DNA of 54,420 bases from Lachnospiraceae bacterium. GTDB lineage: Bacteria; Bacillota; Clostridia; Lachnospirales; Lachnospiraceae. The stretch covers positions 1 to 54,420 of the forward strand of contig JAETNQ010000023.1 in assembly GCA_021772075.1 (NCBI GenBank), in the 5' to 3' direction. Under the pieces are notes generated by a model. The model was not told the DNA's origin. It was given only the letters and a program-made list of their open reading frames with translations, and made no database searches. The position numbers were made by a program, and so were the translations under genes. Shown here piece after piece: positions 117-33,072 of this stretch; the first letter of the stretch is position 1; the number at the start of each line of letters is the position of its first letter.

Positions 117-123
117 CAATACA

Positions 124-460
124 TGGAATAGGCGGGAGTCGAACCCGCGTCCAAAGACCCATTCCCTGTCCTTCTACTATCATAGTCAATTATATTCCAT
201 TCCCTCCTATATCGGGAAATTGACAGCCCGATATATTCAGTAGCTTCATATTACGCCCATAGGCTCAAAGCTTTGCCCATGTCGTTTCCCGCATCGTCGA
301 TGCCCGGTTCCCGGCGTGCGGGTGCGCCGGGGCGGACAGCTGCCATTAGGCAGCGAATGCTAAATTATCTTCAGCGTTTATATTTAGATTCGCGATTTGA
401 CGCATCGCCTGCGGATAGCTTCTCCAGCTGCAAGACCCCTGTCGAAACCTTTACTATCCC
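124..460 (-). ncRNA. ssrA: transfer-messenger RNA (tmRNA)
   Basis: The 5' end GGGATAG pairs with CTATTCC at the 3' end (one G-U), forming the 7-bp acceptor stem. Next to it are the hallmark GTTTCGACAGG near the 5' end and a T-arm GCGGG-TTCGACT-CCCGC near the 3' end. CCA is not encoded. The tag reading frame ends at TAA (346-348) and reads ANLNINAEDNLAFAA from a GCG resume codon (346-393); the hydrophobic AA end is the usual degradation signal. tmRNA frees stalled ribosomes and tags their products together with SmpB, whose gene lies just upstream on the same strand. Ends are inferred from stem pairing, so they may be off by one or two bases. Confidence 0.96.
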
Positions 461-13015: not shown

Positions 13016-13088
<73 letters not shown>

Positions 13089-18272: not shown

Positions 18273-19565
18273 TTATTCACCCATGATCCTGCCGTTTTCC
18301 AGCAGTTCTTCCACCAGCTGGAAGGTATCCATTCCAAAAGTATCCATTTCCAGCCATTGGTACTGCATAGCGGCAATGACATAAGCCCTATCGCCTTTCC
18401 TCCCAAGATAAAGTCTACAGTCCGCCGTTCCATTGCCGTCTGCAACGCTGAATTGCGCTTCCATAGTCTCCCCGATGCAAGTCTCCCCGCAGGAACGTAT
18501 GCTTACGTCATCCGCCTCTTCTCCAAGTCCCCCGCTTATGATCATCTTCAGATATTCTTCGTCATCCCCCCCGTCCGGCAGTTCCTCTTCCAAAACAATA
18601 GCGCTCAAATCACCAACAGCAATGCCGCAGCCCGCTCCGTCGCTGTTTCCTCCCGGAGCGTAAATAACGACCTCGTCATCCTCAAACTCGATTTCCCATC
18701 CCTCCGGGAAATCGAACTCTATGATGCTGGAAAATCCTGCTTCCGACTTTTCGATATATCTGTCCAGCCTTTCCTTCATCTCTTCCGTATCCCATCCAAG
18801 GTCTATTTCATAAAAAGCTTCCAGTTCTTCTATCAGCTCCGGCGTTTCAGGCGTTGATTCCTGCCCGTCCACCGTCACATCCAGCAGCGCCAGCATATCC
18901 GGTTCCAGTTCCTTCAGATAAGAGGTTCTATAGCATACATGATATTCTTCCTCCAGATCGTCATAAAAACAATATTTTGCCGTTGCAGCAACGGCATTTT
19001 CGCCGGAAGCACGAATATCCGCAATCTCCAGATCCCCGTATTCTCCGCGTACGGCGCCTTCGTCCTCATAGTAGATTCCATCCATATGCTTCTGCAGCAT
19101 TTCTTCAAGGGAAGCGCCCTCCTGCTCCATGATCCCATAAGGATTGATGCTGAAATCAAAAGTAACGCCGAACACAGATGCCCAGGCGGTACCCGGCAGT
19201 TCCCCGTTCATGACAAACCACGATTCGTCCCAATAAGGAATATAAAGCGTAACTGTCTTGCGCCTTATCCTTCCGTTCCTCTTATCTTCCTCGATATGGG
19301 CGGTCAGCACTTCCTTCTGCATATATTGGAACCCGTCGTAGTCCCCTATATCTTCCATGCCGAATACCGGAACCTGGGAATCCTGGGCATCTTCTGCCTC
19401 CCCATCCCCTGCTTCCGAAGCTTTTTCCGTTTTTTTGTCTTCGCCTTCCTTTTCTGCCGCCGTATGAGCCACATTTCTGACTTGCTCCATGGGACCGCAT
19501 CCGACAAGCAGCATACATAAAAATAGAGAAATACCGATCCGCAAACCAACTGTTTTTTTCTTCAT
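18273..19565 (-). CDS. acidic lipoprotein of unknown function
   Basis: A 430-aa secreted protein with a clear lipoprotein signal: MKKKTVGLRIGISLFLCMLLVGC, lipobox LVGC with Cys23. A linker rich in Glu, Lys, Ala and Asp follows (about 35-65), then a globular part of about 360 residues with two halves: VTLYIPYWDESWFVMNGELPG and, later, EFDFPEGWEIEFEDDEVVIYAPGG, the latter like the beta-rich modules found in Clostridia surface lipoproteins. No enzyme motif is visible. No promoter is evident in the 214 bp upstream, which hold the structured elements after serA, so it may depend on read-through from serC-serA. Confidence 0.78.
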   Translation of the reverse strand: MKKKTVGLRIGISLFLCMLLVGCGPMEQVRNVAHTAAEKEGEDKKTEKASEAGDGEAEDAQDSQVPVFGMEDIGDYDGFQYMQKEVLTAHIEEDKRNGRIRRKTVTLYIPYWDESWFVMNGELPGTAWASVFGVTFDFSINPYGIMEQEGASLEEMLQKHMDGIYYEDEGAVRGEYGDLEIADIRASGENAVAATAKYCFYDDLEEEYHVCYRTSYLKELEPDMLALLDVTVDGQESTPETPELIEELEAFYEIDLGWDTEEMKERLDRYIEKSEAGFSSIIEFDFPEGWEIEFEDDEVVIYAPGGNSDGAGCGIAVGDLSAIVLEEELPDGGDDEEYLKMIISGGLGEEADDVSIRSCGETCIGETMEAQFSVADGNGTADCRLYLGRKGDRAYVIAAMQYQWLEMDTFGMDTFQLVEELLENGRIMGE

Positions 19566-19627
19566 TTATCCCGCTCCTGTTCGGCTCTTCGCCTTTTGCA
19601 TCCCAAATCCCATTGCGCTAACCCCCA

Positions 19628-19686
19628 TGCCGCCTCCGGCGGCACAAACCATCAACGGGAAGAACGCCGTATTTCTGGCGTTCTTC
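19628..19686. repeat. two strong hairpins between serA and the lipoprotein gene
   Basis: TGCCGCC-TCC-GGCGGCA (19628-19644, 7 bp perfect) and GAAGAACGCC with GGCGTTCTTC around an 8-nt loop (19659-19686, 10 bp perfect). Neither is followed by a T-run on either strand, so they are poor intrinsic terminators. They adjoin the cloverleaf element at 19688-19785. Confidence 0.8.
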
Positions 19687-19687
19687 G

Positions 19688-19785
19688 GTGTGAGAAAGAC
19701 TTGCGAAGCAAGTCTAGTACTTCTTAGCGAAATGCCCTCTGGCATGAACTTAAATTGCTAAAGCAATTCGAAGTACTTCTCACAC
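19688..19785. repeat. 98-bp cloverleaf-like inverted-repeat element overlapping the serA stop
   Basis: Outer arms GTGTGAGAA (19688-19696) and TTCTCACAC (19777-19785) are perfect inverse copies; a second closing pair AGTACTTC (19716-19723) and GAAGTACT (19770-19777) lies inside. Three perfect hairpins fill the space: AGACTTGC-GAA-GCAAGTCT (19697-19715), ATGCC-CTCT-GGCAT (19732-19745) and AATTGC-TAAA-GCAATT (19753-19768). The serA stop codon (19780-19782) is part of the outer right arm. The layout is typical of dispersed palindromic units or of a structured 3' UTR. Confidence 0.88.
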
Positions 19786-20943
19786 TACTACCCTGACGCG
19801 GAATACTCCCGGAATCGACTGCAGCCTCCCGATCATATCTTCCGTCGCCGGGCTTTCCAGATCAATCATCGTATACGCCACTTCCCCTTTGGATTTATTG
19901 GTCATATCGGTGATATTGATGCCCTCATCGCCAAAGCAAGCAGTAAATTTCGTAATCATATTCGCTATGTTTCTATGGAAAATAGCGATTCTTCCCGCCT
20001 GGGAACAAATTCCCATATCACAGTCCGGGTAGTTTACGCTATTGACAATGTTCCCATTTTCCAGATAATTCATTAGCTCCTTTACCGCCATCTTCGCGCA
20101 GTTGTCTTCGGATTCCTCCGTAGACGCGCCAAGGTGGGGAATCACGATGCAGCCTTCCTGCCCCGCCGTTACCGGATTGGGAAAATCGGATACATATTTC
20201 CGTATCTTTCCCCCCCGGATTCCTTCCAGCACATCCTCTTCCTTCACCAAGGAGTCCCTGGAAAAATTCAGCAATATGACTCCTTTTTTCATTTTTTCTA
20301 TAGCCGCTTTATCCACCATGCCCCTCGTACTGTCCAGCAGAGGAACGTGTATCGTAATGATGTCGCAGTTTTCATAAATCTCTTCCACATTCAGCACATG
20401 CTTCACGTCGCGGCTCAGGTTCCATGCCGCATCCACGGACACATAAGGGTCAAATCCATAGACTTCCATCCCCATGTGCTTTGCTACATTCGCCACTTTT
20501 ACGCCGATCGCGCCTAAGCCGATAATGCCCAGTTTCTTATCCTGCACTTCCGTTCCCGCAAAATTCTTTTTTTCCTTTTCCGCCGCTTTTGCAATATTTT
20601 CGTCCGACTTATTGGCCTCCACCCAGTTGATGCCGCCTACGATATCCCTGCAGGCAAGGAGCATTCCGGCAATCACCAGTTCTTTTACCCCGTTGGCGTT
20701 CGCCCCGGGCGTATTGAAAACAACGATGCCCTTCTCCGCGCACTTATCCAGCGGAATATTATTCACTCCCGCCCCCGCCCTGGCAACTGCCAGCAGCCTT
20801 TCGGGCAGCTCCATATCATGCATTGCCGCGCTGCGGACCAAAATCCCGTCCGCCTCGCCGATCTCCTCCGTTTTCTTATAATTTGCGGTAAACTTATTCA
20901 ACCCTACCTCCGCAATCGGGTTTAAACAATGATATTGAAACAT
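19780..20943 (-). CDS. serA: D-3-phosphoglycerate dehydrogenase, short ACT-containing form
   Basis: SerA oxidises 3-phosphoglycerate to phosphohydroxypyruvate, the first step of serine synthesis. The 387-aa product shows the NAD-binding GLGAIGVKVANVAKHMGMEVYGFDPY, the catalytic region DFPNPV...VIPHLGASTEESEDN with the conserved histidine, and a C-terminal ACT domain (about 315-387, MIDLESPATEDMIGRLQSIPGVFRVRVV) that usually binds serine for feedback. It lacks the extra middle domain of long SerA forms. AGGAGG-like GGGAGG lies before the ATG. It follows serC by 21 bp in one operon; the stop codon is inside an inverted-repeat element. Confidence 0.95.
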   Translation of the reverse strand: MFQYHCLNPIAEVGLNKFTANYKKTEEIGEADGILVRSAAMHDMELPERLLAVARAGAGVNNIPLDKCAEKGIVVFNTPGANANGVKELVIAGMLLACRDIVGGINWVEANKSDENIAKAAEKEKKNFAGTEVQDKKLGIIGLGAIGVKVANVAKHMGMEVYGFDPYVSVDAAWNLSRDVKHVLNVEEIYENCDIITIHVPLLDSTRGMVDKAAIEKMKKGVILLNFSRDSLVKEEDVLEGIRGGKIRKYVSDFPNPVTAGQEGCIVIPHLGASTEESEDNCAKMAVKELMNYLENGNIVNSVNYPDCDMGICSQAGRIAIFHRNIANMITKFTACFGDEGINITDMTNKSKGEVAYTMIDLESPATEDMIGRLQSIPGVFRVRVVV

Positions 20944-33000: not shown

Positions 33001-33072
33001 CAGCTCGTAGGGGAATCGAACCCCTGTTTCCGCCGTGAGAGGGCGGCGTCTTGACCGCTTGACCAACGAGCC
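33001..33072 (-). tRNA. tRNA-Glu(CTC)
   Basis: Acceptor GGCTCGT/ACGAGCT (first pair G-U), D-arm with TTGGTCAAGCGGTCAAG, anticodon stem CCGCC/GGCGG with loop CTCTCAC (anticodon CTC, codon GAG), T-arm CAGGGG-TTCGATT-CCCCT, discriminator G. CCA is not encoded. The G1-U72 pair is unusual for tRNA-Glu; length 72 nt. Confidence 0.95.

What the first reader, a model, noticed from the sequence alone, without database searches (positions are those of the whole stretch)
19688..19785. Cloverleaf-like inverted-repeat element that includes the serA stop codon
Outer 9-bp perfect arms, a second 8-bp closing pair and three perfect hairpins within 98 bp form a multi-branch structure, and the outer right arm holds the serA stop. 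Such a dense palindromic layout is not a terminator (no T-run) and not a known riboswitch that I can name. It could be a dispersed palindromic mobile unit that inserted at the end of serA, or an RNA element that protects or processes the serC-serA message.
Basis: partly seen in the sequence, partly recalled or inferred. Interest (0 to 1): 0.72.

Follow-up and report, generated by a model that had tools for sequence, protein, structure and literature searches.

The report
Mobile palindromic repeat docked at stops
The folded DNA at the end of serA is one of about forty copies of a modular hairpin repeat scattered through this gut bacterium's genome, usually lying right at a gene's stop codon, and it looks like a mobile sequence rather than a serA control switch.

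Summary
The structure is real and far from chance (z -5.5), but it is not specific to serA. It is the core (module A) of a ~170-bp copy (window 19618-19787) of a dispersed, modular palindromic repeat: 39 model hits in this genome, 107, 98 and 39 in three congeners, hits in 12 of 16 genus genomes, own included, and in 16 of 250 genera of the family, own included. No Rfam family matches. The other 12 genus genomes with a serA hit have no copy there and end RVRVVK*; here the element supplies the last Val and the stop. Copies lie almost only in sense (co-directional junctions 60:1), and 58 of 82 with a same-strand upstream gene start -6 to +5 nt from its stop codon. In 19 of 99 arrays the 3' end is the next frame's Shine-Dalgarno and start. 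Stems co-vary strongly, but as Watson-Crick pairs with G-U about as rare as A-C, which favours a DNA-level origin. The enzyme is unknown: Y1 and IS630-type transposases gave no hit in the copy-richest genome. I read it as a new BOX/MITE-like family with an unusual docking habit.

The parts
19618..19787 (-). whole repeat unit (TA | module A - hairpin B - hairpin C - ATGGGGGTTAG), read in the serA direction
   Evidence: Same order of modules in copies printed; limits inferred from near-identical copies and from the serA site of G015.
19688..19785 (-). module A: multi-branch palindrome (the finding)
   Evidence: Fold z -5.47; model hit 19659-19787 (A plus B), 117.5 bits; 22 of 42 pairs, B included, change on both sides across 38 copies.
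19697..19715 (-). optional arm hairpin GACTTGC..GCAAGTC, absent from 13 of 38 aligned copies
19732..19745 (-). conserved inner hairpin (ATGCC/GGCAT)
   Evidence: Helix 5: 4 of 5 pairs with two-sided changes, 99.5% of cells paired.
19753..19768 (-). optional hairpin AATTGC..GCAATT, present in 8 of 38 aligned copies and tandemly expanded in L020 and L022
19780..19782 (-). serA stop codon TGA, supplied by the repeat (GTG TGA); G015 has AAA TAA here
19786..19787 (-). TA that precedes the repeat (TA in 88 of 95 arrays)
19659..19686 (-). hairpin B, GAAGAACGCC..GGCGTTCTTC
   Evidence: helix 7, 91% of cells paired.
19629..19643 (-). hairpin C, GCCGCC..GGCGGC (ATTCCGC..GCGGAAT in many G012 copies)
19618..19628 (-). 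3' terminus ATGGGGGTTAG: Shine-Dalgarno-like; with a following RTG it opens a frame of >=60 codons in 19 of 99 arrays; here the next gene starts ~52 nt further on
   Evidence: next ORF 18273-19565 (-).
19780..20943 (-). serA, upstream host gene
Evidence: ORF; 81-96% identical hits in 12 other genus genomes.

Best explanation
Window 19618-19787 is one copy of a dispersed, non-autonomous, modular palindromic repeat (MITE/BOX-like) of Lachnospiraceae. SHOWN: it is multi-copy across the genus. The serA site lacks it in the other 12 genus genomes examined, Lachnospiraceae bacterium 28-4 (G015) among them, so it was most simply gained on this genome's lineage, where it stands in place of the final Lys codon and stop. 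Copies dock in sense, with their first bases TA|GTGTGA acting as, or lying beside, the upstream stop codon, and the 3' end GGRGGTTRGNRTG serves some copies as the downstream frame's ribosome-binding site and start. INFERRED: it moves by an unidentified activity that joins its 5' end to a TA, preferentially at stop codons. Insertions persist because the element closes the upstream frame and can re-open translation downstream, so an operon junction survives a ~170-bp insert. Its hairpins are kept near-perfect mainly by DNA-level events (template switching between arms, or conversion by sister copies). Once transcribed, the folded spacer may change processing or stability of the two flanking messages; that step is not tested.
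For: Copies: 48 places at E<=10, 19 of them below 1e-9, some places being pieces of one copy; 39 model hits in the own genome and 12 of 16 genus genomes positive; 16 of 250 genera. SerA: one model hit, the own one, among 13 loci. Other comparisons: L171/L168 and six junctions, four of which lack a copy in G015. Identical cores at 2-5 places. Docking: 58 of 82 within -6 to +5 of the upstream stop. Against a TA-site null of 9-16%, 11 of 16 convergent cases sit at the stop (P 3e-6 to 6e-9), and 31 of 49 co-directional cases against 10.8% (P 1.6e-18); both leave out the GTG TGA class. Orientation 60:1 in co-directional junctions and 50:1 in an overlapping sample. Terminus GGRGGTTRGNRTG opening >=60 codons: 19 of 99 arrays, against 0 of 93 reading outward from the 5' side. 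Palindromes: G-U 29 and A-C 38 of 1996 pairs (A3), G-U 46 and A-C 53 of 2666 (A4), against tRNA control G-U 17 and A-C 0 of 199. Six orthologous filled pairs: 29 two-sided against 9 one-sided changes.
Against: No mobilising gene was found, and no clean target duplication: at serA the codon AAA is missing, and in L171 roughly 20-25 bp of the ancestral site is absent. Every comparison with a site lacking the repeat is between species, none within one. Some orthologous sites are filled in two species, so some copies are old residents. The strict sense orientation could equally mean selection for an RNA function. G-U exceeds A-C in A2 (33 against 18) and, without two weak internal pairs, in A4 (43 against 21; my sum from the per-pair table). 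In one search one of five covariation measures, further pair types, is not raised (39 against 41.4 in shuffles).
Confidence: 0.78

Rival explanations
1. A cis-acting intercistronic/3'-UTR RNA element that is selected for (RNase processing site, stabiliser or translation insulator), spread over many operons and kept by selection on the transcript.
For: Sense orientation 60:1; abuts the stop codon also where the next gene is convergent, 11 of 16; 22 of 42 pairs with two-sided changes; some copies lie just behind -10-like boxes, e.g. L018 and L012/L039.
Against: G-U is not enriched over A-C overall in A3 and A4 and both are ~2%, whereas the tRNA control has 8.5% G-U and 0 A-C. Optional hairpins differ at the same site between species. 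No copy at the serA site of 12 other genus genomes. 4 of 16 genus genomes have no model hit.
Confidence: 0.3
2. REP/REPIN-type repeat mobilised by a RAYT (Y1 tyrosine transposase), because a GTAG or TTAG precedes the stem.
For: G at -3 in 18 of the first 39 copies, mostly before TA|G. REPs carry a terminal GTAG and are linked to RAYTs (PMC3733652, passages read).
Against: The genome with 107 hits has no Y1_Tnp hit; one with 10 Y1 hits has no copy; this genome has one broken fragment. Of 30 of the 43 Y1 hits whose loci were held, 1 has a good copy nearby. Size ~170 bp against REPs of 20-40 bp (PMC3733652 abstract).
Confidence: 0.05
3. MITE of an IS630/Tc1-type element (TA target).
For: TA precedes 88 of 95 arrays.
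Against: No terminal inverted repeat between the two ends (GTGTGAG.. and ..ATGGGGGTTAG). DDE_3 (PF13358) gave no hit in the two copy-richest congeners, G012 and G004.
Confidence: 0.05
4. A serA-specific riboregulator.
For: The stop codon lies in the structure.
Against: Dispersed copies, and no copy at serA in 12 other genus genomes.
Confidence: 0.02

Closest known systems
BOX elements of Streptococcus pneumoniae (PMC3049150: passages and section 6)
   Same: Modular, dispersed, 67-637 bp; outer arms with an optional, multipliable inner module; predicted folded transcript. The share between convergent genes is alike (BOX 16 convergent and 70 upstream of a CDS there; 19 of 95 here).
   Different: BOX is reported with terminal inverted repeats and target duplications, and with distances to genes that follow the ordinary intergenic pattern. 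Here most copies start at the stop codon, in sense. No sequence test of relatedness was run.
YPAL, ERIC, Correia/NEMIS, RUP (review PMC2229807: passages)
   Same: Small mobile palindromic repeats with folded transcripts; 5'-TA at the termini of several; [quoted passage not shown]
   Different: Most in that review's table have terminal inverted repeats, and several have target duplications. The passages I read do not say that they begin at the stop codon or supply the next ribosome-binding site.
REP / GTAG palindromes and RAYTs (PMC3733652: passages)
   Same: A TAG-type tag before the stem; alternative complementary stem residues between subfamilies.
   Different: REPs are 20-40 bp, G-T pairs are described as often observed in them, and they are linked to Y1 transposases. 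Here ~170 bp, no overall G-T excess over A-C, and no linked Y1 in this genome or in G012.
EFAR repeats of Enterococcus faecalis (recalled only; the library search returned nothing)
   Same: As recalled: modular palindromic insertion units assembled from several sequence types, with loss of target sequence on insertion.
   Different: Not compared in sequence; the recalled targets are stem-loops, here stop codons.
Template-switch maintained hairpins (PMC8794818: abstract and opening read)
   Same: Offers a mechanism for two-sided changes without G-U intermediates.
   Different: A mutational mechanism, not an element family; shown there for RNA genes.

Membership tests
Small interspersed palindromic repeats (MITE-like in the broad sense) | many dispersed near-identical non-coding copies, mostly <200 bp | tested here: met
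Small interspersed palindromic repeats (MITE-like in the broad sense) | empty orthologous sites | tested here: met
   SerA site without a copy in 12 of 12 other genus genomes; between species only.
MITE (strict) | terminal inverted repeats | tested here: not met
   The first bases of module A pair with its own 3' arm; the far end ATGGGGGTTAG is not its complement.
MITE (strict) | target-site duplication | tested here: inconclusive
   TA precedes 88 of 95 and often recurs in ..GGGGGTTAG; no same-species empty site was available.
MITE (strict) | parental transposase with matching ends | tested here: inconclusive
   Y1_Tnp and DDE_3 do not track copy number; other families not searched.
REP/RAYT | Y1 tyrosine transposase gene flanked by the repeat | tested here: not met
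   loci of 30 of 43 Y1 hits examined, one copy near.
BOX | boxA-(boxB)n-boxC sequence homology | not tested
   BOX sequences were not fetched; resemblance is architectural.
Rfam families (riboswitches, leaders and others) | match to a curated covariance model | tested here: not met
   No match at module A in 10 loci at E<=1 or in the window at gathering thresholds. One sub-threshold CRISPR-DR17 match (25.9 bits, cut-off 42) fell in the tandem hairpin repeats of L022.
Functional structured RNA | covariation with G-U in excess of A-C | tested here: inconclusive
   Covariation strong; G-U not in excess in A3 and A4 overall, mild excess in A2 and in A4 without two weak pairs.
Functional structured RNA | transcribed and folded in cells | not testable with these tools
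   No RNA data.

The most novel reading that the evidence does not exclude
A class of mobile palindrome whose integration is coupled to translation termination: its 5' end is joined at UA|G of stop codons, on the coding strand only, as if it enters through the mRNA or the non-template strand. It carries a complete operon-junction kit (stop codons in two frames, folded spacer, Shine-Dalgarno plus start), so that it can enter an operon without breaking either gene.
Probability: 0.15. Interest if true: 0.88.

Novelty: new variant of a known kind. Interest (0 to 1): 0.6.

Why it matters
Small interspersed palindromes are usually explained as insertions tolerated in dead space. This family instead sits mostly inside co-directional gene runs, in one direction and at the stop codon, and in some copies rebuilds the next gene's start signal. 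That makes two questions testable: how a repeat finds stop codons, and whether hairpin covariation can arise at the DNA level without RNA selection, which is a warning for covariation-based RNA discovery. It also gives a multi-copy marker for gut Lachnospiraceae and may explain some contig breaks in their assemblies.

Tried and rejected
Y1/RAYT mobiliser: rejected. IS630-type: not supported. Known RNA family: none. Terminator: the scan of 19400-19900 finds two terminator-like sites against 0.3 in shuffles: on the minus strand, the serA direction, a weak 5-pair stem (19669-19653) that overlaps hairpin B and its spacer, and on the plus strand the arm hairpin 19697-19715. Phage carriage: the pattern occurs in only 3 stretches of the viral collection, and none is a model hit at E<=0.01. 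Simple TA insertion with neutral survival as the cause of the stop-codon position: rejected by the null; a hand count of 12 of 17 used was corrected to 11 of 16. Literature: in the listings (titles and starts of abstracts of at most 20 papers each, often out of many more) I saw no description of this family in Lachnospiraceae. PMC2267715 was looked at for passages only and not used. EFAR is recalled only.

Limits: genes were called by a simple longest-ORF script, so distances beyond ~10 nt are rough. The 39 copies were picked by a regular expression; 38 were aligned. Context counts use 121 elements: 35 of 39 hits of G000, 23 of 39 of G015 and 63 of 107 of G012; six of the 127 model hits, truncated or partial, were left out. 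Of 102 arrays, 95 had enough upstream sequence. In one search at most 150 candidates per genome were scored, so counts may be low. The family search used stricter filters and scored at most 15 candidates per genome. In one search, 75 of 90 model hits were used, tandem units counted singly, and some of those records are the same genomes as G012, G013 and G015, so overlap. One search compared six orthologous filled pairs; L126/L173 (one one-sided G-U change visible) and two L141/L166 pairs were not counted. One of its 29 two-sided changes no longer pairs. In one search two of 15 hom loci (L210, L218) were shown in a wrong frame; one search covers them with the model.

Full report
OBSERVATION. 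The 98 bases fold as described: -43.9 kcal/mol in 131 nt against -26.4 +/- 3.2 for 200 shuffles, none as good. The serA stop (minus strand, 19780-19782) lies in the outer right arm. The outer and inner arms share base 19777, so they cannot both pair fully.

WHAT IT IS. A search of the own genome with 131 bp finds 48 places at E<=10, 19 of them below 1e-9, on many contigs; some places are pieces of one copy. Copies share one architecture, read in the serA direction. It runs TA, then module A (outer stem GTGTGAG..CTCACAC, inner stem, a conserved hairpin, up to two optional arms). After that come C, hairpin B (GAAGAACGCC..GGCGTTCTTC), a spacer, hairpin C (GCCGCC..GGCGGC) and ATGGGGGTTAG. Units can stand in direct tandem: of 102 arrays, 85 are single, 15 double and 2 triple, with no mixed orientation. 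A covariance model from 38 copies finds 39 hits here, 107 in G012, 98 in G004 (lower scores, a divergent subfamily), 39 in G015 and 33 in G013. Of 16 genus genomes, own included, 12 have at least one at E<=0.01 and 4 have none. In the family, 16 of 250 genera, own included, are positive at E<=1e-4 with stricter filters. G015 is Lachnospiraceae bacterium 28-4, because its contig lengths equal those of KE159598 and KE159599. No Rfam family matches.

INSERTION. SerA was found in 13 of 16 genus genomes. In the 12 others it ends RVRVVK*, and the model finds no copy in their loci, while it finds the own one. Here serA ends RVRVVV*, where the last Val codon and TGA are the element's GTGTGA. Between serA and the next gene, G015 has a short junction. 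At hom-apgM (names by recall from the sequence, not scanned) this genome and G015 carry different variants, G012 has a weak hit of 31.9 bits in a decayed-looking insert, and the other 12 of 15 loci have no model hit at E<=1. In a 13-kb and a 10-kb stretch with six copies compared with G015, four of the six junctions lack a copy in G015 and two are filled in both species with different variants. Identical cores occur at 2 to 5 places in one genome. So copies are gained or lost between species, and some stay long.

DOCKING. Among 95 arrays with flanks from G000, G015 and G012, TA precedes the first G in 88. Flanking genes are same-strand on both sides in 60, and opposite to the element on both sides in 1; 19 are convergent, 11 divergent, and 4 lack one neighbour. 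Of the 82 with a same-strand upstream gene, 32 start so that TA|G is the stop codon, 12 so that GTG TGA is, 11 directly after a stop, and 3 within 3-5 nt. If copies landed at random TA sites, 9-16% of convergent cases should be at the stop (122 junction readings without a copy); 11 of 16 are. For co-directional junctions it is 31 of 49 against 10.8% (241 junctions). These tests leave out the GTG TGA class. In 19 of 99 arrays the element-type end GGRGGTTRGNRTG opens a frame of at least 60 codons, against 0 of 93 when read outward from the 5' side; a looser motif gave 38 of 99 without a control. In the window the next gene starts about 52 nt beyond the unit, so this use does not apply to serA.

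PALINDROMES. Covariation is strong: 22 of 42 pairs change on both sides, 150 cells against 42.5 in shuffles, and 96.2% of cells pair against 87.4% in shuffles and 40-48% when slid; one of five measures, further pair types, is not raised. It is almost purely Watson-Crick. G-U and A-C are 29 and 38 of 1996 pairs in A3, and 46 and 53 of 2666 in A4, while nine tRNAs from the held sequences give 17 and 0 of 199. In A2 the counts are 33 and 18, and without two weak internal pairs A4 gives 43 and 21 (my sums), so the symmetry is not perfect. Six orthologous filled sites show 29 two-sided and 9 one-sided changes; one pair with ~95% identical flanks has a two-sided change in the outer stem. Template switching between arms can do this (PMC8794818, abstract and opening read), and so can conversion by sister copies. 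I did not separate the two.

MECHANISM. Mobility is inferred from dispersal, sites without a copy, and identical copies. The enzyme is unknown. Y1 transposases gave no hit in G012, which has 107 copies, and ten in G010, which has none. DDE_3 gave no hit in G012 and G004. The stop and start signals at the two ends explain why a copy inside an operon can be tolerated. The docking at stops where the next gene is convergent is not explained by that, and is the most puzzling part. An RNA effect is plausible, because a copy at the end of a gene should be transcribed with it, but nothing here tests it.

NOVELTY. I file it as a new family of small interspersed palindromes with an unusual habit. Architecture is closest to BOX (PMC3049150); membership in BOX, REP or strict MITEs is not claimed, because terminal inverted repeats and a linked Y1 gene were tested and not found, and BOX homology was not tested. 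In the listings of searches I saw no description of it; most subscription papers are not in that library.

Noticed in passing
L316:338-425; also L049 and L057 (G013): A sister repeat with the same hairpin B but a different palindrome (AAACATTAAGAAACTCT..AGAGTTTCTAAATGTTT), in the first case beside the stop codon of the upstream gene.
   Followed up: partly
L020 and L022 around 1440-1540: The optional hairpin's half-unit is expanded in tandem (TTAAATTGCTAAAGC about 4 times, AAATCACTAAAGTG about 5 times).
   Followed up: no
L018 at 1482, L012 at 1463, L039 (oriented 1502): Some copies start directly behind a -10-like box (TATACTA|GTG, TATGATTA|GTG), i.e. near a possible transcript start, again in sense.
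   Followed up: partly
L014:492-659 (-): TwoAYGGAY RNA (RF01731, 122 bits), far from the repeat.
   Followed up: no
window 121-460 (-); tRNAs at 13016-13088 (-) and 33001-33072 (-): tmRNA and two tRNA genes in the window.
   Followed up: no
G012 contig ends, e.g. L300, L304, L305: Contigs of the copy-rich genome end inside this repeat (truncated hits), so it probably breaks assemblies.
   Followed up: no
L125 against L170: One species has an extra inner hairpin in module A at the same genomic site, with ~95% identical flanks: hairpins may be gained one at a time.
   Followed up: partly
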